Part shown: one piece after another, positions 17,558-55,486 of the stretch
Position numbering within the stretch: position 1 is the stretch's first letter
How the letters are laid out: each line of letters opens with the position of its first letter
Source: Roseimaritima multifibrata
GTDB lineage: Bacteria > Planctomycetota > Planctomycetia > Pirellulales > Pirellulaceae
Direction: 5' to 3'
Assembly: GCF_007741495.1 (NCBI RefSeq)
Contig: NZ_CP036262.1
Coordinates: 5,952,001 to 6,016,000, forward strand
DNA length: 64,000 bases
Notes under the pieces: model-generated
The model's database searches: none
The model's input: only the letters and a program-made list of their open reading frames with translations
Told to the model about the DNA's origin: nothing
Position numbers and translations under genes: made by a program

Positions 17558-17750
17558 GACGTGGGCTAACGACGCAGGCCATCGACTTTGGCATCTTCGG
17601 ACGGATTTCCTTGCCGATCGGCGCAAGCCGACCGGCAAGTTCATTCTGTTTTCTATGCGATTGCCGGACGGCACGCGCCGTTCCGTTAAGAAAGTAGACG
17701 GTATTGGGCTAGCGATGCAGGGTCGCAGTCTGGCGGTCCCACCGCAAAGC
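16688..17750 (+). repeat. Long direct repeat, copy 1 (3' part of ELWxxDGT gene plus downstream flank)
   Basis: From 16688 this tract matches 21520 onward with a constant offset of 4832 bp and about 18 mismatches by eye over 870 bp. Homology continues past the stop codon, with a 12-bp length difference near 17575-17600, to roughly 17750. Upstream of 16688 the two genes are clearly more diverged, so the high-identity tract looks like a recent duplication or gene conversion. Confidence 0.85.
17610..17639 (+). terminator. Hairpin downstream of ELWxxDGT copy 1 (degenerate)
   Basis: Arms 17610-17620 and 17629-17639 are complementary over 11 bp with one A-C mismatch, loop of 8. It is followed by TTCATTCTGTTTTC, a partial T-rich tract. 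It corresponds to the perfect hairpin at 22430-22459. The arms match the dispersed GGTCGGCTTGCGCCG element in the reverse orientation. Confidence 0.45.
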
Positions 17751-22389: not shown

Positions 22390-22570
22390 GACGTGGGCTA
22401 ACGATCAATCCCACCCACTGGCAGATTTCCTTGCCGGTCGAGGCAAGCCGACCGGCAAGTTCATTCTGTTTTCTATGCGATTGCCGGACGGCACGCGCCG
22501 TTCCGCTAAGAAAGTAGATGGCATTGGGCTAACGATGCAGGGTCGCAGACTGGCGATCCAACCGCAATGC
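21520..22570 (+). repeat. Long direct repeat, copy 2 (3' part of second ELWxxDGT gene plus flank)
   Basis: Partner of 16688-17750. This copy runs on past the stop codon into the 3' end of the ligase/TPR gene on the opposite strand (22529-25036), whereas copy 1 carries only a short tail of that gene. This suggests that copy 2 is the donor. Confidence 0.85.
22430..22459 (+). terminator. Rho-independent-type hairpin between convergent genes
   Basis: CTTGCCGGTCG at 22430-22440 and CGACCGGCAAG at 22449-22459 form a perfect 11-bp stem with an 8-base loop, followed by TTCATTCTGTTTTC. It lies 41 bp after the stop of the ELWxxDGT gene and before the end of the convergent ligase gene, so it may serve the plus-strand transcript. 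Confidence 0.55.
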
Positions 22571-25079: not shown

Positions 25080-27425
25080 CTAGGCAGCCCGGCGCCGAGG
25101 TGTCGAGCGTCGAACAGGAGCGGTCTTAGGTGCAGCCGAATCGGTATGCACGACTAATTCAGATTGCGAAACGGCGTTTTGGCTGGGCATCACCACGGCT
25201 TGTTTTTCATCGGTTAGCTCGTCGCCGTAACCGTATCCATAGCCGTAACCGTAGCCGTACGCTCCATCAGCGGTGCTCGCATCCATTGCATTAATGACCA
25301 TTCCCAGCACATTGGTTTGGAATCGCTCCAAGCGTTCGATCGCTCGTAGCACATGCCTTCGCGAATTCTTCTCCGGCCGTACGACCAACACCAATCCATC
25401 GGTCAATCGAGTTACCAAAGCAACATCGTTCGCGATTAAGACAGGTGGGCAATCGAGAACGACATGGTCGTAACGACTAGCAGCCCACTGAACAATATCG
25501 GACAACGCGTTACTCGCCAGCAATTCCGCGGGATCAAGTGGTCGTGCCCCACATGGGATCAATTCCAAATTATCAATTCCCGTGGACATGACATACTTAT
25601 CGACCACATCCACCGGAGACATTTCAACAAGCAGTTGGCTGAGGCCCTTAGCGTGCCGCACGTTGAACAAATTGGTCATTCCAGGTTTACGCAAGTCCGC
25701 ATCGATAACCAGAGTTCGTTTACCTGCTTGGGCGAGTCCAACGGCCAGGTTACTACTGATGGTTGTCTTGCCATCCCCAGGTTCCGAACTACTTACCGCA
25801 ATCAGGCGAGGCTTCGCTGGATTCAGCATCAAACCAGCACGCAGGGTGCGGAACGCCTCGCTTGAACGAGTCGAGGGAGCAACGTGCATCTGAATTGCCT
25901 CCGCTCCGTACTCTCCATAGGTTTCAAGTTTTTCGACCACCGCAAGAATCTCGGTACGCGTCTGACGTTCAGCCTCTTCAAGGCTTGCAAAGCGATCGTC
26001 TCGCAAGTCTGCGATATAGACCAACCCGACAGACAACAACGTCGAAAAGAAACCGGCTGCAAGGACAACAAGTCTCAAACGCGGCGAAACGGCTGCAATC
26101 AATGCCTTGGGCTTGCCAATCACCGCGACTCGCACAGCGGCCTGGTCCTGCCCCAAATCAACTCCATGAATTTTCTCCAGCAACGCATCATATGCGCGAC
26201 TAAGTCGATCGACCTCACGCTGCGAAAGCAGCATTTCGCTTAGACTTCCATTCATGGCGACCACCTCTTTTTCAAGGGTGTCGTATTCCTTTCTCAGAAG
26301 AGCTTCATGCTGAGTCGATTCATTCAATTTCTGCTGGACTAAATCACCCAACAAAGCCGCAAATTGGCCTCCACTTTGATTGCTTGATCGTCCGTTGACG
26401 CGAGCCTGAAAATCAGACAGATAGGTCTCCGCATTGGAGATTTCGCCCTGCAAGGCAACCATACTTGGGTGAGTTGGCCCCAGATGCTTTTCAAGCCGCA
26501 TTACCTCAGCTCGGTCGCTTAGCAATTTCTGCTCTAGCACATGGATCGATCGCATCTGCTCTGGCGCAACCCCGAGAACCGCAGCGGTCAACGAGCGAGC
26601 AGCATCAGGATCAACAGCATGCATGTGCGGTCGCGGATCACGACCTTCGCGAATAGCGTCGGACACCACTGCAGAAATAGCCTGGAGCTCGATCCGAGTT
26701 TTCTGAGCCTGTGTGAGGCTCTCGTTCAAACTATTGACTCGCTGAAGTGCTGGGTGAGACTTCAAAGAATCATTATCAAAACCAACAACATGTGCTTCGT
26801 CACGAAGCTTAATCAGCCTTTGCTGTTCTAGATGTAAGGTCTCTTCTATCTTCTCTCGCTCTCCCTTCAACAACTCAAGCACCGTCACGGATGTGTCCTG
26901 GTGATGCTGTTGCATAAAGTCCAGATAGGACTGCACTAAGACATCAAGAACAACTTCGGCTGCCTTTGGGCTGGCCGATCGATACGACAATTCGATGACA
27001 TTTGTATTGCGAACCAACTGAACCGTTAAGTTACCTTGCAGGGTGGTCAACGCCTGCTCATCGGAAAGCCCAACAAGATCAATTTGCAAGCTGGAATCCA
27101 TTTGGCGAAGTTGATCCAAAGCCTGCTTGAGCACGCGGTCACTTCGAATGATTTTTTCTTGAGTCGGCAGCTTGTTGGATTGAGCCGTCGGAGACGCTCC
27201 AGGGAAAACCCCAATGCTAGGTTCTTCCACCAGCAACTGAGCGCTCGCTTGATAGACACGATCCGCCGTGACATAGTAAATCCCAGCAAACAGCCCGACC
27301 AACAAAAACACGGATGCCACCATGCGCTGGCGTCGCATCATCCCGTTTCCGAAACGAAGCAACGCCTGTATGGCATCTGCCGCTGTTAGATGCTGAGGAC
27401 CGCTTAGATTTTCAATTTGATTCAT
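25080..27425 (-). CDS. Wzc-like polysaccharide co-polymerase / tyrosine autokinase (BY-kinase)
   Basis: 781 residues. The N-terminal Wzz domain has a first membrane segment near residues 37-56 (MVASVFLLVGLFAGIYYV), a long coiled-coil periplasmic part (~180-440) and a second membrane segment near 455-475 (LRLVVLAAGFFSTLLSVGLV). The C-terminal kinase has Walker A SSEPGDGKTTISSN (about 545-558), Walker A' LVIDADLRKPGM and Walker B-like HVVLDCPPVL. A tail near residue 722 holds six consecutive Tyr-Gly pairs, the expected autophosphorylation cluster. BY-kinases control chain length and export by cycling between phosphorylated and oligomeric states. The gene lies 21 bp after the wza-like gene and 43 bp before the ligase gene. 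Confidence 0.93.
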   Translation of the reverse strand: MNQIENLSGPQHLTAADAIQALLRFGNGMMRRQRMVASVFLLVGLFAGIYYVTADRVYQASAQLLVEEPSIGVFPGASPTAQSNKLPTQEKIIRSDRVLKQALDQLRQMDSSLQIDLVGLSDEQALTTLQGNLTVQLVRNTNVIELSYRSASPKAAEVVLDVLVQSYLDFMQQHHQDTSVTVLELLKGEREKIEETLHLEQQRLIKLRDEAHVVGFDNDSLKSHPALQRVNSLNESLTQAQKTRIELQAISAVVSDAIREGRDPRPHMHAVDPDAARSLTAAVLGVAPEQMRSIHVLEQKLLSDRAEVMRLEKHLGPTHPSMVALQGEISNAETYLSDFQARVNGRSSNQSGGQFAALLGDLVQQKLNESTQHEALLRKEYDTLEKEVVAMNGSLSEMLLSQREVDRLSRAYDALLEKIHGVDLGQDQAAVRVAVIGKPKALIAAVSPRLRLVVLAAGFFSTLLSVGLVYIADLRDDRFASLEEAERQTRTEILAVVEKLETYGEYGAEAIQMHVAPSTRSSEAFRTLRAGLMLNPAKPRLIAVSSSEPGDGKTTISSNLAVGLAQAGKRTLVIDADLRKPGMTNLFNVRHAKGLSQLLVEMSPVDVVDKYVMSTGIDNLELIPCGARPLDPAELLASNALSDIVQWAASRYDHVVLDCPPVLIANDVALVTRLTDGLVLVVRPEKNSRRHVLRAIERLERFQTNVLGMVINAMDASTADGAYGYGYGYGYGYGDELTDEKQAVVMPSQNAVSQSELVVHTDSAAPKTAPVRRSTPRRRAA

Positions 27426-27446
27426 ACTAAAACATCAAACAGTAAA

Positions 27447-28520
27447 TTAGATTCCGGGAACTGCGGCGCTGAAGCCTACTCGGAAGAAGGAGCGGATGGT
27501 TTGGAGGGCGATGGTTGATGGGGTCTCTTCGACGCGGATGATGTCGCCTTGCGCTAGTCGCATGTTGTCGGGGCCTCCTGACATCGCATCCGAGATCGAT
27601 GCTTCAATCACTGCGGGTGCCGCTTGCCCCGGTAGCGTTCGAATCACATGGACCTTGTCGGCGATCGACAAGGTCGTGCCGCCTGCCTGTGCAATGGCGT
27701 CCATTAACATCAAATCCTCTCCGTCTGGCATGTCGATCTGCCCCGGCTTGGTCACCAAGCCAATCACACTGACCATTCGCTTGGGCTCTCGCATCACGTT
27801 GACCACACTTCCGTCGTACAACTGCAGTGCGCCCGGTGGCTGAGATTCCAATTGACCCAAATCAAGATTGACCATCGCAGGTGGTGTGCCCGACTGGAAA
27901 GACGCCAACGCGACTCCGTCGGGTCCAGTTACCGGTGCGGTCTTAGCCAAATCACTTAATGTCGTTGGAGAATGTTTGATTTCGATGTAGCGACTCGCTT
28001 CATCCGAAACACCCTTTGCCATCGTGATTGCGGTCAAAAGATCGCAATTCGATGCTGGAATTTCATAGGTTGCAGGTTCGTTAACCGCTCCGACAACCGA
28101 AATCTGGAAAGTCCGTTTCTCTTCGATCGAAACCATGACTTTGGGATCGATGTAAATTCCCTTCTGAATCGAAGTATCTCGAATCCGATCCGCCGCCATC
28201 GTCGGCGTCAAGCCAGAGACTTTTGCGGGTCCTACCAAAGGAACGTCGATCGTCCCGTTGTTGTCGACCAATAAGTTCCACTTTGGCGTTGCCCCCTCTT
28301 CAACCCCCGTCACAATACTGACTTCAATCGTATCGCCCGGCTGCAACCACTCGGTAGGTACCGAATTTCGGGTCATCTTGCTTAGGTCCACGTGACGCGC
28401 ACTAATATGGTGCGGCGCATGAAACTCCGGTGGCAAATTCGCTACCGAATAACGCGCATGTGAACAGCCGAGGGCGGCAAATAGCAAAGCCACTAGACAG
28501 CAGCACTTGATTCGACGCAT
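27447..28520 (-). CDS. Wza-like outer-membrane polysaccharide export lipoprotein (SLBB domains)
   Basis: 357 residues with a lipoprotein signal: a basic start, a hydrophobic core and lipobox LGC at residues 17-19, so Cys19 is the likely lipidated residue. The Poly_export domain is at ~55-150 (WLQPGDTIEVSIVTG; PLVGPAKVSGLTPTMAADRI). SLBB-type repeats follow (FQISVVGAVNEPATYEIPA; RMVSVIGLVTKPGQIDMPDG). The C-terminal TIRSFFRVGFSAAVPGI may be the membrane-crossing amphipathic part. It is the first gene of the minus-strand wza-wzc-ligase operon, with the promoter presumably in 28521-28860. Confidence 0.92.
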   Translation of the reverse strand: MRRIKCCCLVALLFAALGCSHARYSVANLPPEFHAPHHISARHVDLSKMTRNSVPTEWLQPGDTIEVSIVTGVEEGATPKWNLLVDNNGTIDVPLVGPAKVSGLTPTMAADRIRDTSIQKGIYIDPKVMVSIEEKRTFQISVVGAVNEPATYEIPASNCDLLTAITMAKGVSDEASRYIEIKHSPTTLSDLAKTAPVTGPDGVALASFQSGTPPAMVNLDLGQLESQPPGALQLYDGSVVNVMREPKRMVSVIGLVTKPGQIDMPDGEDLMLMDAIAQAGGTTLSIADKVHVIRTLPGQAAPAVIEASISDAMSGGPDNMRLAQGDIIRVEETPSTIALQTIRSFFRVGFSAAVPGI

Positions 28521-28860: not shown

Positions 28861-29133
28861 GGAGCGCGAGCGGCTTGCGCGGTGTTAAGAATGCTGGCAG
28901 TGCTGTAATAAAGTGAGGCCGGACGGCTCGCGCCGTGCCGCTAAGAGGGTTGGTGGAGCTGTGACTGCAAGAGGCCGGACGGCTTGCGCCGTGCCGCTAA
29001 GAGAGTTGGTGGAGCTGTGACTGCAAGAGGCCGGACGGCTTGCGCCGTACCGCTAAGAGGGTTGGTGGAGCTGTAACGAAGCGGGGCCGGACGGCTTGCG
29101 CCGTACCGCTAGGAAGATTGGTGGCTGGATACG
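28861..29133. repeat. 56-bp tandem repeat, about five units (element A)
   Basis: GGCCGGACGGCT begins at 28917, 28973, 29029 and 29085, an exact 56-bp period. A degenerate unit occupies 28861-28916. Each unit contains CGGCTTGCGCCGT(G/A)CCGCTAAGA followed by GTTGGTGGAGCTGT. The last unit abuts the stop codon of the POTRA-like gene. There are no unique spacers, so it is not a CRISPR array. Confidence 0.9.
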
Positions 29134-31491
29134 TTACGTTGGTTTCACCATGCCCTGTAATGCAGAGCGGAGATCGGGTTCGATAACTTGGTAGATCGCT
29201 TTGTCGATGTGTGAATCCTGCTTGATCAGCTGCTCCCGAATCCTTTGCAACAAGGCTTGCCCGCGAGGGAAATTTTTCAGAACTCCGCTCGAAAGCGCAT
29301 CCCACTCCTCTTCTTCCAACCCCTCTAACGCTGACAGCATTTCTTTAAACCAATTCCCTCCGGGACCAGCTAGCAAACCTGTCAAATCGCTCGCGAAATG
29401 CTCCTGGTCGACTCGCAGGAGAGCTTGCCGAGCCAGTTGTGATGCTAGATTTGAATCGATATGGGCAAGCAAGCCCGCTACCGATCCTAAACATAATGGT
29501 CCGATCTTCGGGTCCTCCAGCAATCCCTTTAGGACGGGCTTGAAATAGCGGGGCTTTCCCAACCCAACGAGTGCCGATTCTCGCAGAACTTTTAATGGCC
29601 ATTCCCCTTCGGGAAATATCTGCGGTCCATACTCGAGGCTCGCTCTGGCGACCAATTGGATCCCCATGCCGAAAGGACTTTTGGGGCCCAGGTCATTGGA
29701 TGGCACAAAAAATCGCTCCTCTCCCCTGCCCTGCTCCTGTTTTCCAATCCACAGGTCAAGCGGCTCCAAAAGCCCTGCAGCGAGCAGCTTTTGCACGGCT
29801 CTGCGCTGAGCATCCGATGCTTCTTCCACAACAGGTTCCCCGTCTCGGATCGCTTCATGGATATCATTCCAAATCGGAGCGGCGCACAAGAACTGAGCCA
29901 ACGAAGTGAGCGGATGCTTCGCCTGGTACGCGTTCTGCTTTTCGGCAACCGCATCCAACAGGACTGTCCGTTCCTTCTCATATAGCCCCTTCTGAAAATA
30001 AACGCCTCCTCGATCCGAATCCCACTGGAGAACCCGGCCCGTCGCAACATCGATACGGCACCTTTGTTTCGGGTGCTCCGCTATCAAAACGCCATCGACA
30101 ATCTTCTGCTCAAGCCCTGGCTTATAGGCGAACGCAAGCCAGTCCGCAGGAGATACCGCGAAGGCATGCTGAAAGAGCGACTGCCCTTCGTTCCGGCCGG
30201 TTTTCCAATTCCCAGTGAAATTAAGCCTGGCAAATCCATCTTCTGATTTCCCATCAGCCAGGATCCCGGTCTGCGCATGAACGTGAAAATCGGCCCCTGC
30301 AATTCCGGCGGACCAATGGAGAGGATTCGCTTGGTGATCGAGAACCAATTGCTCGTCATCAAACAGGATCGACCAGCGAGGGATGCTTTCGTTTGGCTCG
30401 GAACTGGAGAAGTACTGCAGCAACGACCCTTTCGATGACTGAATCCAACGCAAACGTCGATGATCATCGACGAACGTAAAAACCAAGTCGTCATGACGCT
30501 CCTGACTTCCTCCAATCCAATTCCCGGCCCGCCGAAAGACCTCGGCGGACTCACTAAGGCTCTGACCCAGCGAGGGCATTTTGGGGACTTCGGTCACCTT
30601 GACGACCAGATATCCGCTTCCCTCTTTGTTGCGAAGAAAACGAACGGACTGGTCGGAGAAACGTCCAGAGAGCCATAGTTGCTTCGTCCATTCTTCAATT
30701 TTCGACCGATCGATTTCATCGTTGGGGTGCCAACCGATCGCCTGTGCAATCTGCTCGGGCGTATTCACTTGATACCCGATGCACTCGATTGATTCTGCTT
30801 TGTCCTTGCTTCCCTCTTCTGCGATTTCAATCACCAGAGAGGCACTGTGAGTTTCCTCGTTGAGCTCGACCCGCGTAAAGACGATCGCACTGGAATACCC
30901 CAAATCGGCGATTCCCCGCACCACCGCAGCGTGAAGTTCCGTCTCAGTATCCAACGAGACTGGAGTCCCGGGTTCCCAAACGGGATCGACCAGCGGAACC
31001 GTTTTTCCCTTTTCATTGACCCATCGCTGCCGGATTTCCCCGCCCGCTTCGACAAAAGCAGGAAAGGTGTTGGGTTTTGGGAAACGCTTGGTCAGTCGTT
31101 CGATCAGCCGTTCAGGATCCAACGTCACCCCGCCTTGAATCCGGATTTTTCCGCAAAGCATGCGGGCCCCTTCATCGATACGAATGGTCGTAAGAGGCGG
31201 ATCTGCCTGGGAGGTGACCGAAATGATTGGTGAGGGAAACCCCTTACGCCGATAGCCGTAGACTAAGCCATTGCGAATGACGCCTTCCAGTTCATCGGAT
31301 GACCCAAGCGGGTGAGTCGCTAGCAGAAAAGTCGGATCTGCGATGAGAGCTTTTCTCAACGCCGCATCCGAAAACGCTTGGTTCCCTTCGAAATGAAAGC
31401 GAGCCCAAGGATCCTCGGGGATGGTTTTCTGAGCGTTGACCACCTGCGACGCGGCGCAGCAACAGAAAAATGCCAACAAGAACAGGGGCAC
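29134..31491 (-). CDS. Exported POTRA-like protein lacking an evident beta-barrel
   Basis: The frame is open from 31791, but its first 100 codons are made entirely of the 111-bp tandem repeat. The GTG at 31491 is preferred because it begins a good signal peptide (VPLFLLAFFCCCAASQVVNA followed by QKTIPED). This gives 785 residues. The mature N-terminal half resembles successive POTRA domains (FHFEGNQAFSDAALRKALI; LVYGYRRKGFPSPIISV; CGKIRIQGGVTLDPERLIER; AESIECIGYQVNTPEQIAQA). The middle is rich in beta-like segments, and the C-terminus is helical and acidic (GLEEEEWDALSSGVLKNF), without the aromatic C-terminal barrel signature of BamA/TamA. The role is unknown; it may be a periplasmic outer-membrane-assembly accessory. 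The gene sits alone between two repeat arrays. Confidence 0.65.
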   Translation of the reverse strand: MPLFLLAFFCCCAASQVVNAQKTIPEDPWARFHFEGNQAFSDAALRKALIADPTFLLATHPLGSSDELEGVIRNGLVYGYRRKGFPSPIISVTSQADPPLTTIRIDEGARMLCGKIRIQGGVTLDPERLIERLTKRFPKPNTFPAFVEAGGEIRQRWVNEKGKTVPLVDPVWEPGTPVSLDTETELHAAVVRGIADLGYSSAIVFTRVELNEETHSASLVIEIAEEGSKDKAESIECIGYQVNTPEQIAQAIGWHPNDEIDRSKIEEWTKQLWLSGRFSDQSVRFLRNKEGSGYLVVKVTEVPKMPSLGQSLSESAEVFRRAGNWIGGSQERHDDLVFTFVDDHRRLRWIQSSKGSLLQYFSSSEPNESIPRWSILFDDEQLVLDHQANPLHWSAGIAGADFHVHAQTGILADGKSEDGFARLNFTGNWKTGRNEGQSLFQHAFAVSPADWLAFAYKPGLEQKIVDGVLIAEHPKQRCRIDVATGRVLQWDSDRGGVYFQKGLYEKERTVLLDAVAEKQNAYQAKHPLTSLAQFLCAAPIWNDIHEAIRDGEPVVEEASDAQRRAVQKLLAAGLLEPLDLWIGKQEQGRGEERFFVPSNDLGPKSPFGMGIQLVARASLEYGPQIFPEGEWPLKVLRESALVGLGKPRYFKPVLKGLLEDPKIGPLCLGSVAGLLAHIDSNLASQLARQALLRVDQEHFASDLTGLLAGPGGNWFKEMLSALEGLEEEEWDALSSGVLKNFPRGQALLQRIREQLIKQDSHIDKAIYQVIEPDLRSALQGMVKPT

Positions 31492-31499
31492 ACGTTTTG

Positions 31500-31832
31500 G
31501 AGAACCAAGCTGCTGGCCGGTCGGCTTGCGCCGATCCGCTAAGAATCTCAACCGCAAATCGCCAACCACTTTCGTAACGGATCGGCGAAAGTCGAATCGT
31601 CGTAGCGTGGGAGAACCAAGCTGCTGGCCGGTCGGCTTGCGCCGATCCGCTAAGAATTCCAACCGCAAATCGCCACCCACTTTCGTAACGGATCGGCGAA
31701 AGTCGAATCGTCGTAGCGTTGGAGAACCCGGCTGCTGGGCGGTCGGCTTGCGCCGATCCGCTAAGAATCCAAACTGCAAAACGCCACCCACTTTCGTAAC
31801 GGAGCGGCGAAAACCGTCCGGTGGTTAGTGAT
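31500..31832. repeat. 111-bp tandem repeat, three units (element A core inside)
   Basis: GAGAACC starts at 31500, 31611 and 31722, an exact 111-bp period. Each unit contains GGTCGGCTTGCGCCGATCC followed by GCTAAGAAT and then CACTTTCGTAACGGATCGGCGAAAG. Because 111 is a multiple of 3 and stops are rare, long frames run through it on both strands. It lies immediately upstream of the POTRA-like gene and may contain its promoter. Confidence 0.9.
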
Positions 31833-35846: not shown

Positions 35847-35941
35847 GGAGGGTCGATCCTAAACGGGCTGTCGATGAAGCGATTGTCGCCCTCGGGCCGT
35901 TCAGACGGAACTGAGCCAAGGGGCGGGTTCGCTACGAGTGC

Positions 35942-36031
35942 CAAATTCGCACCGTTCAAATTCGCACCGTCCAAATTCGCACCGTCCAAATTCGCACCGT
36001 TCAAATTCGTACCGTCCAAATTCGTACCGTC
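35942..36031. repeat. 15-bp tandem repeat, six units, encoding pentapeptides on the minus strand
   Basis: Six units of CAAATTCG(C/T)ACCGT(T/C). Read on the minus strand they encode (D/N)G(T/A)NL six times, the usual pentapeptide-repeat pattern. The frame is open from a GTG at 36046 to 35774 (90 codons), but its end overlaps the ligase-like gene by 73 bp and no good ribosome-binding site was seen. It is either a very small pentapeptide-repeat gene or a fossil of a longer one. Confidence 0.85.
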
Positions 36032-36097
36032 CAGTAGCGGGCCCACTTACCGCCAGCCCGCGGCACCGCAAAAGCCGTCCATCAACAATAACGCGGT

Positions 36098-37939: not shown

Positions 37940-40426
37940 ATGTCCGATTCGCTACGCCAGACCATCTATCAGGCTCTTGCTGACACCTGCTTGATCGACC
38001 CTCACACGCACATCAACCCTCACTCGCCCGCTTCTTCGACGTTGGCGGATGTGTTGGGCTATCACTATTACACCGAATTAGCCCACTCGGCAGGCATGCC
38101 TCGCGAGCACATCGAAGCGGCAAACCTGGGGCCCAAGGAAAAGGTGGAACGTTTGGTCCACGGACTGGCCCCGTTGGAGAATACGGCTCAGTACAGCTGG
38201 TTGATTGCAATCTGCCAACGCTTTTTCGGCTTCGAAGAAGACAAACTGACACCAGACAACTGGGAAGCGGTCTACGACGCAGCCGAAGAAAAGATGCGGA
38301 TCGCCGAGTGGCCCGATCTGGTCCTGGAAAAGAGCAATGTCGAAGCGGTCTTTTTGACCAACGATTTCGACGACGCATTGGAAGGATTTGATACCAACAA
38401 GTACATTCCCTGCCTGCGAACCGACGACCTTGTTTTTCACCTGGGCAAACCAGAGGTTCGCGAGCGACTGGCGGCCTGCAGCGGGATCGAAGTCAGCGAC
38501 TTGGGAACGCTCCGCGAAGCGCTGCAGCAACGCTTCGAGCACTTCACTCGCAATGGGGCCCGAGCCTGTGCGATTTCGCTTCCCCCTTCATTCTCTCCGA
38601 CGCAAGTCACCGACGGACGTGCGGCAACGGCTCTAGATGACGTCCTTCGCAGTGGCACCTCCGCCGCCCCGGCACATCAGGATGCCCTCGCCCGCCGAGT
38701 CTTCTGGACCCTGGCCGAATTGTGTGATGAATACAATCTGCCGTTCGACCTGATGATCGGTGTGAACCGCGGCGTTTATCCTGCCGGGGTCTATCAAGGA
38801 CAGGACCTGTACGACAGCCGAGTCTCGCTGATCCAGTACCGTGAACTGTTCAACGCGTTCCCCGAAGTCAAATTTCCGATTTCGGTATTGGCAAGCGTCA
38901 CCAACCAAGAACTGGTCAGCTACGCATGGATTTTCCCCAACGTCCTAACCAACGGGCATTGGTGGTACAGCAACACCCCTAGCTTCATCGAACGCGACGC
39001 GACGGCTCGTCTGGAAGCGGTCCCCCAGACCAAGCAAATCGGCTACTACAGCGACGCCTACAAACTGGAATTTGTCTGGCCCAAATTCGACATGTATCGT
39101 CAGATCCTAGCCAAAATCCTGACCGAATCCTTTGTGATTGCACGCGGCTGGTCCGAAGAACGAGCGATTGCACTCGGGAAACAGATTCTCCGTGGCAACG
39201 TCGAAACCATCTTTCCCGCTCGCGAACCATCGCCGCCAGCGGAAGAAGCCGTTCCTTCCGATTCGTCGACTGCCGATTCTTGGGATATCGCTGGAGCCAC
39301 CGGCGCCGCAGTGATCGCCCCAGCAGCAGGTGCGATCGCCGGAGTCTTCACCGAACCGTACCAAGCATCGGAAATCGAGAAAGAAGCCGAAATCGAAGCG
39401 GAAATCGAAGAAGCAGCCGAGGAAATCGAAGCGGCAGCCGAAGCGCAAATTGAACAAGCGGTCGAAGAGATCGAAGAAGCAGCCGAAGCGGAAATCGAAG
39501 AAGCGGCCGAAGAGATCGAAGAGGCTCTCTACGACGCCGATGGGGATGACGACGAACCGATGGAATTTGCGACCATCGATTCCTCGGAAGATATGACTCC
39601 CGAACCAGAAGTCGCGTTCGACACCGACCAGGAAGTGGCCGACGAAGAGGATGATGCGGAACTATGGACCGGGCCTGAAGAGACCCTCGAAGTAGCCACC
39701 GAAGAGAATTCCATTGAAATCAAGGACCCGCTGGCCGAACTAGAAACTGAATCGCCCGGACTAGAAACCGAATTGTCAGCGGCAGAAATCGAGCTTTCAG
39801 AACCAGAGGGCGACCGGTCAGAACCGGCGGTCGAATTGCCTGAACTTGAAACCGAATCGCTCGTTTTAGAAACCGAATCGCTGGATATTGACGTTTCCCT
39901 GCCAGAAACCGAAACGGATCCACTCGCCCTCGCACCCGAGGCGACCGAGACAACCGAGACAACCGAGGCCGCCTCGGAGATCGTTTTTGACCTGGACCAG
40001 GAAGCATCGGACGAAGAAGACGACGATGAACTGTGGACGGGTGCCGAGGAGTCTCTGGAAATCGAGTCTGCGGAGCCCGAATCACCGACCGCGGAAGCCA
40101 CTCCAGAAATCGTCTTTGATTCCGATCAAGAAGCTTCGGATGAGGAAGACGATGCCTTGCTCTGGGGAACCGATTCGGACGACGAGGAGGACGAAGACAG
40201 CGAGGGGGATCTGACAATCGAACCGCCCTTCAACGAACCGCCTCCAACCGAATTGCCAGGCCTTGAGGAATACACCGAACTGAACGATTCGGGAACCGTC
40301 ATGCCTCCCGACGATTCCGAAGAGGAAGGATTCGGTCTGCTCTCGGATGGCTCGTCCGTTTTCGAATCGGACGAAGAAAACACCGATAGCGAGGACGATG
40401 GGAAGGACACCCCATCGCCAAACTAG
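37940..40426 (+). CDS. Uronate isomerase-like amidohydrolase with a ~400-residue acidic tail
   Basis: 828 residues. Residues 1-~422 resemble glucuronate isomerase (UxaC-like, amidohydrolase superfamily): LIDPHTHINPHS has the HxH metal motif, followed by YTELAHSAGMPREH, FLTNDFDDALEGFD, PFDLMIGVNRGVYP, SVLASVTNQELVSYAWIFPN and NGHWWYSNTP. From ~423 to the end the protein is highly acidic and of low complexity. First there are E/I/A/Q heptad-like repeats (about 470-530, likely coiled coil), then three copies of a motif FD.DQE..DEEDD..LW starting near residues 558, 681 and 724. Family enzymes are normally about 470 residues, so the tail is extra. Its function is unknown; it could be for binding cations or partner proteins. 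The reaction is inferred from the family. Confidence 0.75.
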   Translation: MSDSLRQTIYQALADTCLIDPHTHINPHSPASSTLADVLGYHYYTELAHSAGMPREHIEAANLGPKEKVERLVHGLAPLENTAQYSWLIAICQRFFGFEEDKLTPDNWEAVYDAAEEKMRIAEWPDLVLEKSNVEAVFLTNDFDDALEGFDTNKYIPCLRTDDLVFHLGKPEVRERLAACSGIEVSDLGTLREALQQRFEHFTRNGARACAISLPPSFSPTQVTDGRAATALDDVLRSGTSAAPAHQDALARRVFWTLAELCDEYNLPFDLMIGVNRGVYPAGVYQGQDLYDSRVSLIQYRELFNAFPEVKFPISVLASVTNQELVSYAWIFPNVLTNGHWWYSNTPSFIERDATARLEAVPQTKQIGYYSDAYKLEFVWPKFDMYRQILAKILTESFVIARGWSEERAIALGKQILRGNVETIFPAREPSPPAEEAVPSDSSTADSWDIAGATGAAVIAPAAGAIAGVFTEPYQASEIEKEAEIEAEIEEAAEEIEAAAEAQIEQAVEEIEEAAEAEIEEAAEEIEEALYDADGDDDEPMEFATIDSSEDMTPEPEVAFDTDQEVADEEDDAELWTGPEETLEVATEENSIEIKDPLAELETESPGLETELSAAEIELSEPEGDRSEPAVELPELETESLVLETESLDIDVSLPETETDPLALAPEATETTETTEAASEIVFDLDQEASDEEDDDELWTGAEESLEIESAEPESPTAEATPEIVFDSDQEASDEEDDALLWGTDSDDEEDEDSEGDLTIEPPFNEPPPTELPGLEEYTELNDSGTVMPPDDSEEEGFGLLSDGSSVFESDEENTDSEDDGKDTPSPN

Positions 40427-55450: not shown

Positions 55451-55486
55451 CTGCCGGAAGGTTTGCGCCGTTCCGCTAAGAAAGTT
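55451..55486 (+). repeat. Single copy of the element A core
   Basis: CTGCCGGAAGGTTTGCGCCG followed by TTCCGCTAAGAAAGT; it corresponds to the cores at 17661-17697, 22481-22517 and in the arrays at 28861 and 31500. Confidence 0.7.

What the first reader, a model, noticed from the sequence alone, without database searches (positions are those of the whole stretch)
28861..31832. Two different tandem arrays sharing one core motif bracket a single POTRA-like gene
A 56-bp array (about five units, 28861-29133) abuts the gene's stop codon, and a 111-bp array (three units, 31500-31832) abuts its start. Both contain GG(A/T)CGGCTTGCGCCG..CCGCTAAGA. The same core occurs singly at 17661, 22481 and 55451, and in reverse near 17630 and 22450. 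Two independent expansions of one element on both sides of one gene suggest a replication- or transposition-related element, or a regulatory or nucleoid-binding site.
Basis: seen in the sequence. Interest (0 to 1): 0.72.

Follow-up and report, generated by a model that had tools for sequence, protein, structure and literature searches.

The report
REPIN hairpin arrays around one gene
The two arrays are local expansions of a short hairpin element found many hundreds of times, mostly between genes, in this planctomycete genome, and a gene resembling a single-strand-DNA transposase sits inside the largest cluster of the same hairpins that was examined, so this looks like a mobile repeat family of a known but little-studied kind.

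Summary
The core CGGCTTGCGCCGNNCCGCTAAGA occurs 720 times (up to 3 mismatches) in the window's 7,216,590-bp genome, against 2 for the reversed pattern. By exact length the genome is Roseimaritima multifibrata FF011L. The core is an imperfect bulged hairpin. In a 1.2-Mb sample 217 of 221 copies lie outside predicted genes, and 75 of 79 adjacent -/+ copies sit 56-62 nt apart, tails outward. That is REP/BIME/REPIN architecture.

The likely mover is a 168-aa HUH/Y1 protein (G000:C1:6384305-6384805) inside the largest REP cluster I saw. It fits "class 3 TnpA_Y1", reported chiefly from Planctomycetes with high-copy atypical hairpins (PMC6006769). Homologues across the phylum are bracketed by shared repeats, and REP type follows the protein tree.

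Orthologues of the POTRA-like gene in two same-genus genomes have no REP beside them, so these arrays look lineage-specific. Units are alike within an array and unlike between arrays, pointing to dispersal followed by local tandem growth. Catalysis, cleavage site and the amplification step are inferred. Known kind, new family; the pairing of TnpA clade with REP type is the most useful result.

The parts
28871..28893 (+). degenerate REP, first unit of the 56-bp array
   Evidence: GGCTTGCGCG at 28872; read
28924..28946 (+). REP core, 56-bp array
28980..29002 (+). REP core, 56-bp array
29036..29058 (+). REP core, 56-bp array
29092..29114 (+). REP core, 56-bp array
29134..31491 (-). POTRA-domain gene between the arrays (not itself part of the element)
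   Evidence: Pfam PF07244; start codon GTG at 31491 inferred
31522..31544 (+). REP core, 111-bp array
31572..31594 (-). degraded inverted REP partner; forms a REPIN with 31633
   Evidence: 4 mismatches, offset 61
31633..31655 (+). REP core, 111-bp array
31683..31705 (-). degraded inverted REP partner; forms a REPIN with 31744
   Evidence: 4 mismatches, offset 61
31744..31766 (+). REP core, 111-bp array
31794..31816 (-). degraded inverted REP at the array end
   Evidence: 4 mismatches
17608..17691 (.). single REPIN (- at 17608, + at 17669, offset 61), followed by the outer flank AAGTAGACGGTATTGGGC at 17692-17709
   Evidence: DNA fold of 17601-17691 z -3.9
22428..22511 (.). single REPIN (degraded - at 22428, + at 22489, offset 61), followed by the outer flank AAGTAGATGGCATTGGGC at 22512-22529
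55459..55481 (+). lone REP
   Evidence: no upstream partner better than 9 mismatches

Best explanation
The arrays belong to a high-copy family of repetitive extragenic palindromes (REPs). Two sub-types pair tail-outward as REPINs of about 84-100 bp. On the tail strand each REP reads TC-TTAG followed by a bulged hairpin; on the finding's strand it reads GGCCGGA-CGGCTTGCGCCG-NNCC-GCTAAGA. Most likely a class 3 TnpA_Y1 (HUH motif plus one catalytic tyrosine), encoded inside a large REP cluster, recognises the hairpin and its foot as single-stranded DNA, cuts next to the foot and spreads REPINs to sites between genes. Once a REPIN has landed, its unit plus local spacer is copied in tandem, by further TnpA strand transfer or by slippage or unequal recombination at the hairpins. 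That gives arrays with one spacer each, as on the two sides of the POTRA-like gene. Shown here: repeat family, geometry, intergenic bias, hairpin covariation at two pairs, tnpA inside the cluster, repeat-bracketed homologues, agreement of REP type with protein clade, and no REP at the orthologous gene in two congeners. Inferred: catalysis, cleavage site, and which process makes the tandem copies.
For: 720 copies against 2 control. 217 of 221 sampled copies outside predicted genes. 75 of 79 -/+ neighbours at 56-62 nt. Pair 8-19 is C-G in 126 and G-C in 47 of 181 distinct REPs, and pair 7-20 is A-T in 155 and T-A in 10; both pair more often than any of 200 shuffles. A 97-nt REPIN stretch folds with z -6.5 and the window's 17601-17691 with z -3.9. 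The tnpA gene lies between a run of 13 and a run of 19 REPs. In 19 homologues H89, W133, Y154 and Q159 are invariant, N86 and H87 nearly so. The AF2 model (pLDDT 88.5) matches IS200-family, IS608 and ISDra2 TnpA at E down to 8e-5, and TnpAREP 4er8 at rank 30, E 0.016. 57 of 60 homologue loci share a repeat between left and right flank (55 of 58, 2 of 2), against 1 of 51 far-flank pairs. REP type needs 10 changes on the protein tree, shuffled mean 34, 0 of 200 as low. Spacer identity within arrays is 87% and 93%, between arrays 45% and 57%. The POTRA gene's orthologues in G001 and G002, both next to the same upstream gene, have no REP (up to 4 mismatches) in about 1.5 kb on each side.
Against: No activity shown. 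G001 (80 copies) and G016 (67 copies) hold the repeat, but their only class 3 gene is flanked by a different repeat, so copies persist, or are moved, without a visible cognate gene; both are drafts. G013 and G027 have 10 copies each and no class 3 hit. Single hairpins fold only weakly better than shuffles (z -2.0 and -1.4). The 2018 paper gives the class 3 foot as CnGA; the foot read here is TTAG/GTAG or TGAG. The search consensus allowed both states of pair 8-19, so its covariation is partly built in. Genome-level cut-off of 10 copies was chosen after seeing the counts.
Confidence: 0.87

Rival explanations
1. The spreading unit is a larger MITE with terminal inverted repeats (GCCCAATGCCATCTACTT ... 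AAGTAGATGGCATTGGGC) moved by an ordinary transposase; the REP hairpins are only its inner part. (Could also be an older form of the same element, so not strictly exclusive of the best explanation.)
For: Matches to AAGTAGATGGCATTGGGC (up to 4 mismatches) are 46 in the 1.2-Mb sample against 5 for the reversed control, and 30 of the 46 lie within 200 nt of a REP. Spacing is regular, mostly 0 nt on one side and 19 nt on the other. 13 of 29 clusters of one or two REPs carry it.
Against: Only 5 of 21 clusters with three or more REPs carry it; the outer ends of the cluster that holds tnpA lack it. Homologous tnpA genes are bracketed by shared repeats, often the hairpins. No transposase for such ends was looked for.
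Confidence: 0.12
2. The hairpins are kept mainly as transcription terminators, mRNA stabilisers or gyrase/nucleoid sites; spread is old and function explains their place. (A role of this kind could coexist with mobility.)
For: Of 43 clusters with both neighbours visible, 18 are convergent, 21 tandem and 4 divergent, while intergenic bases are 20%, 51% and 29%; they are scarce in shared promoter regions.
Against: Selection against hairpins in promoters gives the same bias. Within-array homogeneity and REP-free orthologous sites suggest recent gain. No expression data were available.
Confidence: 0.1
3. The arrays grew and spread by slippage and recombination only, and the class 3 protein beside the large array is a bystander.
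For: Tandem growth needs no transposase; G001 and G016 carry 80 and 67 copies without a cognate gene in sight.
Against: Slippage does not explain many separate clusters (50 in the 1.2-Mb sample) in both orientations, nor tnpA genes across the phylum bracketed by clade-specific repeats.
Confidence: 0.06
4. The canonical GTAG RAYT of this genome (two copies at 6488761-6489964) moves the family.
For: It is a bona fide RAYT, 178 bits against a cut-off of 80.
Against: It has its own GTAG REP, and all 6 genome copies of that REP found at up to 3 mismatches lie at the gene; none of the studied REPs is in the 5.4-kb stretch around it at up to 6 mismatches.
Confidence: 0.03

Closest known systems
Class 3 TnpA_Y1 with atypical high-copy hairpins (PMC6006769; I saw find passages, including part of a table, and sections 12 and 27; no supplement)
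   Same: Planctomycete distribution; motifs NHVH, W[TA] and Y----Q; hairpins flank the gene and can be present in hundreds of copies (about 600 in Solibacter)
   Different: Foot given there as CnGA; here TTAG/GTAG (type A) or TGAG (type B). REPIN pairing, tandem arrays and agreement of REP type with tnpA clade are not in the passages I saw
Canonical GTAG REP/BIME/REPIN with RAYT/TnpAREP (PMC3733652 and PMC8266576, passages; PMC3116915, search listing only)
   Different: Foot TTAG not GTAG; the enzymes score 18.3 bits or less (cut-off 80), or not at all, with the RAYT model NF047646
IS200/IS605 family (IS608, ISDra2)
   Same: Y1/HUH fold, best solved-structure matches
   Different: No IS unit with left and right ends seen; hairpins in inverted pairs, in hundreds of copies away from the gene

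Membership tests
REP/REPIN | short palindrome in high copy, mainly between genes | tested here: met
   720 copies; 217 of 221 outside predicted genes in the sample
REP/REPIN | imperfect hairpin with an unpaired conserved foot at one end | tested here: met
   (single hairpins z -2.0 and -1.4); foot column 21 gives TTAG 127, CTAG 21 of 148 C-type copies, columns 18-20 conserved in 94% or more
REP/REPIN | foot is GT[AG]G | tested here: not met
   TTAG in this genome; GTAG occurs beside 7 of 13 type A homologues, GTAG or TTAG beside 10 of 13 (counted from the per-locus rows). So: works like a REP, but not filed in the GTAG super-family
REP/REPIN | inverted pairs at fixed distance, tails outward | tested here: met
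   75 of 79 at 56-62 nt
Class 3 TnpA_Y1 REPtron | HUH plus single Tyr with Y----Q and W[TA] | tested here: met
   own protein: N86-H87-C88-H89, W133-T134, Y154, Q159
Class 3 TnpA_Y1 REPtron | gene bracketed by its own hairpin family | tested here: met
Class 3 TnpA_Y1 REPtron | 5' foot CnGA | tested here: inconclusive
   outer foot is xTAG/TGAG; CGGA does precede the hairpin on the other strand, but the paper's supplementary table was not readable here
Class 3 TnpA_Y1 REPtron | cleavage and strand transfer on single-stranded REP | not testable with these tools
   bench work
RAYT (NF047646) | score above the curated cut-off of 80 bits | tested here: not met
   own class 3 protein has no NF047646 hit listed at E up to 1; G002 homologue 18.3 bits

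The most novel reading that the evidence does not exclude
Class 3 TnpA_Y1 genes and their hairpins are a separate, phylum-wide REP amplification system of Planctomycetota. It uses an xxAG guide instead of GT[AG]G, each TnpA clade has its own REP type, and the TnpA also drives the tandem growth of REPINs into arrays, with array spacers recording local events.
Probability: 0.4. Interest if true: 0.66.

Novelty: new member of a known kind. Interest (0 to 1): 0.5.

Why it matters
The experimental work on REP enzymes that I saw cited is on proteobacterial systems (PMC8266576, passages); class 3 was left as a possible intermediate between IS and REP systems (PMC6006769). Here a complete genome gives hundreds of copies, a gene inside a large cluster of them, a contrast family in the same genome (second class 3 gene; 10 of its 12 REP matches lie at the gene), and REP-free orthologous sites. 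That makes guide recognition, dispersal and tandem growth directly testable, and may explain intergenic arrays in other planctomycete genomes.

Tried and rejected
Rfam (gathering thresholds) and tRNA scans of the window: nothing. PF01797 as the route to the transposase: it listed 8 Y1 genes in the own genome, none with the repeat in the fetched stretch at up to 6 mismatches, and it missed the right gene, which scores 18.7 bits against a cut-off of 23. The gene was found through a relative's REP-flanked copy. The canonical GTAG RAYT pair was considered and rejected as the mover. Ten further RAYT-like places from NF047646, fetched, had no repeat at up to 5 mismatches. An extra hairpin beyond the outer flank was tested and not supported (1 of 32, shuffles 1.3). 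Strand: 388 forward against 332 reverse, a slight excess with copies that are not independent; not taken as a replication bias. Paper searches listed only PMC3733652 and PMC6006769 as papers dealing with REPs in Planctomycetes; some searches listed 15 of 144, 15 of 114 and 10 of 5,420 papers, so this is a weak negative.

Rows dropped: of 80 loci, 60 were entered by hand, of which 58 had 400 nt or more on both sides. Of the 20 left out, 18 have under 400 nt on one side by the coordinates; the other two (L238, L262) I had overlooked and tested. Some shared-flank matches are not hairpins (L255 is a coding duplication), and one far-flank control matched (L218, 52.6 bits). In one search, 65 rows were offered (L215 left out by hand), 4 dropped for a stop in my translation, 61 in the tree; 14 of the 61 had no type A, B or C core. 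Of the six folds the first was cut off-register and says nothing.
Full report
What is there. The window is G000:C1:5952001-6016000 of a 7,216,590-bp, one-contig genome. A 2026 paper lists exactly that length for Roseimaritima multifibrata FF011L, and 8,212,515 bp for R. ulvae UC8, which matches the same-genus genome G002 (passages of PMC13190842; contig length). The identification rests on length only. TRF confirms both arrays. The core is found 11 times in the window, 0 in 100 shuffles, and 720 times in the genome against 2 for the reversed pattern.

Distribution. I took an even sample of 60 stretches of 20 kb (1.2 Mb), called genes with a codon-usage script, and searched two consensus sub-types at up to 4 mismatches. 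There are 221 copies, 217 outside predicted genes, 4 inside; predicted coding is 77.7%. Scaling gives about 1,300 copies in the genome; without the one stretch that holds the tnpA cluster (36 copies) about 1,100 (my arithmetic). The sample has 50 clusters; 43 have both neighbouring genes in view: 18 convergent, 21 tandem, 4 divergent, against 46.9, 118.1 and 67.2 kb of intergenic DNA of those kinds.

Structure. Read as GGCCGGA-CGGC-TTGC-GCCG-TNCC-GCTAAGA, the element pairs C4-G24, G5-C23, G6-C22, leaves base 21 bulged, then pairs 7-20 to 11-16. In 181 distinct copies pair 8-19 is C-G in 126 and G-C in 47, and 7-20 is A-T in 155 and T-A in 10; both exceed all 200 shuffles, the other six pairs hardly vary and do not exceed them. 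The 8-19 result is partly built into the search, which allowed both states. The window's 111-bp array carries the T-A state. Copies alternate: of 79 neighbouring -/+ pairs 75 are 56-62 nt apart, 53 of the 79 being a G sub-type followed by a C sub-type near that spacing; of 58 +/- pairs 57 are 34-44 nt apart. With tails outward and about 84 bp between the outer edges of the cores this is a REPIN. A 97-nt stretch with one folds at -31.7 kcal/mol, z -6.5; single hairpins of the window only reach z -2.0 and -1.4. In the window 17608/17669 and 22428/22489 are single REPINs, and the 111-bp unit is a REPIN with a degraded partner.

Arrays are local. Spacers inside REPINs are on average 87% identical within a cluster (174 pairs) and 45% between clusters (2,601 pairs); spacers between REPINs 93% (153) and 57% (1,443). 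So the hairpin is shared genome-wide and the rest is copied locally.

The gene that goes with it. The eight PF01797 genes of the genome have no copy in the fetched stretches at up to 6 mismatches. In G002 and G012, weak PF01797 genes do: both are bracketed by the repeat. The G002 protein (167 aa) finds a 63%-identical gene in the window's genome at 6384305-6384805, and a second at 3434455-3434916 (44%). The first lies between a run of 13 and a run of 19 copies whose facing copies start 735 nt apart, the largest cluster I saw; the gene ends on a further truncated copy. The second is bracketed by another hairpin family, CCGGGGCTATCGCCCNNNCGGCTCA, whose 12 genome matches include 10 at the gene. 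A separate canonical RAYT pair has 6 GTAG REPs, all at the gene. So there are three hairpin-plus-gene systems in one genome, one of them widely dispersed.

The protein. Nineteen homologues keep W12, Y15, G16, G21, D22, R24, W26, L55, R74, W76, R84, H89, K107, W133, Y154 and Q159, with N86 and H87 nearly invariant. AF2 gives pLDDT 88.5; Foldseek's best solved matches are IS200-family, IS608 and ISDra2 TnpA (E 8e-5 to 1e-3), TnpAREP 4er8 at rank 30 (E 0.016). For the own protein the listed curated models fall below their cut-offs; the G002 and G012 homologues do pass Pfam's PF01797 cut-off (28.4 and 27.2 against 23). The motifs fit class 3 of PMC6006769 (sections 12 and 27 and passages), found mainly in Planctomycetes, Acidobacteria and Proteobacteria, with high-copy atypical hairpins.

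Across the phylum. From 80 loci of named genomes, 60 had 400 nt or more on both sides: 57 share a repeat of 30 bits or more between left and right flank (55 of 58, 2 of 2), against 1 of 51 far-flank pairs. On a 61-protein tree, REP type (A GGCTYGCGCC, B GGCTAGCGCC, C CGANGCG-type, other) needs 10 changes; shuffles need 34 on average and 0 of 200 were as low; 14 of 16 type A rows form one clade at 98% SH-aLRT, the other two have only 1-2 core matches. The foot is GTAG or TTAG beside 10 of 13 type A loci and TGAG beside 10 of 12 type B loci (counted from the per-locus rows), so A3G4 is kept in most; type C feet were not in clear register. The CnGA foot of the 2018 paper is not what I read at the outer end. 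By genome, 11 of the 60 searched (own included) have 10 or more exact core matches, 9 of them with a class 3 gene, against 15 of the other 49 (Fisher p 0.004; cut-off chosen after seeing the counts). The core pattern there covers types A and B, and a class 3 gene with matching REPs at its side was seen in own, G002, G012, G014 and G030, 5 of those 11. Against my reading: G001, G016 and G051 have copies but their class 3 genes that I looked at carry other repeats, and G013 and G027 have 10 copies and no class 3 hit. G031 has 5 core matches, all at its class 3 gene.

Recent gain at this gene. The POTRA-like gene has orthologues in G001 (40%), G002 (43%) and G016 (32%) among seven genomes searched. 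In G001 and G002 the same polysaccharide-export-like neighbour lies next to it, and none of the three loci has a copy within about 1.5 kb at up to 4 mismatches. Measured from the residue that aligns with the neighbour's first, the gap on that side is 105 nt in G002 and 152 nt in G001, against 613 nt in the window.

Mechanism. Shown: family, geometry, intergenic bias, covariation, gene in the cluster, clade agreement, absence at orthologous sites. Inferred: the TnpA binds the single-stranded hairpin, cuts at CT by the foot (PMC8266576 passages, for other TnpAREPs) and transfers REPINs; tandem units then arise locally. [quoted passage not shown] The kind is known. I saw no report of this family, or of the pairing of REP type with class 3 clade, in searches, three of which listed only part of their hits.

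Noticed in passing
17692-17709 and 22512-22529; sample loci: AAGTAGATGGCATTGGGC follows the outer tail of many REPINs (mostly 0 nt on one side, 19 nt on the other), giving a longer form of about 140 bp with imperfect terminal inverted repeats; commoner at clusters of one or two REPs (13 of 29) than at larger ones (5 of 21).
   Followed up: partly
G000:C1:6488761-6489964 (L052): A tandem-duplicated canonical RAYT (182 aa) with 6 GTAG REPs that were found nowhere else in the genome at up to 3 mismatches: a REPtron that has not spread, or a recent arrival.
   Followed up: partly
G000:C1:3434455-3434916 (L137): Second class 3 tnpA with its own REP family, 60-bp tandem units on one side.
   Followed up: partly
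window 25080-28520: Predicted proteins next to the 56-bp array look like polysaccharide export and chain-length/kinase proteins (my reading of their first residues, no family search run).
   Followed up: no
window 31500-31832: The 111-bp unit is 37 codons, so the ORF stays open through the array (885 aa from GTG 31791); an N-terminal REP-derived extension cannot be excluded.
   Followed up: no
L047 and L048 (G000:C1:2096000-2100800, 7105000-7109800): IS200-like genes lie beside other repeated stretches, seen only as repeated peptides in overlapping ORFs.
   Followed up: no
G000 places (67441, 1370790, 1176660, 2392976, 6060994, 7204324, 918072, 2806900): Eight open frames of 366-403 aa with a weak partial RAYT match, possibly a multi-copy family; their stretches hold none of the studied REPs at up to 5 mismatches.
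   Followed up: partly
window 35941-36033, 39369-39525: In-window 15-bp and 45-bp tandem repeats whose consensus units do not contain the REP core.
   Followed up: no
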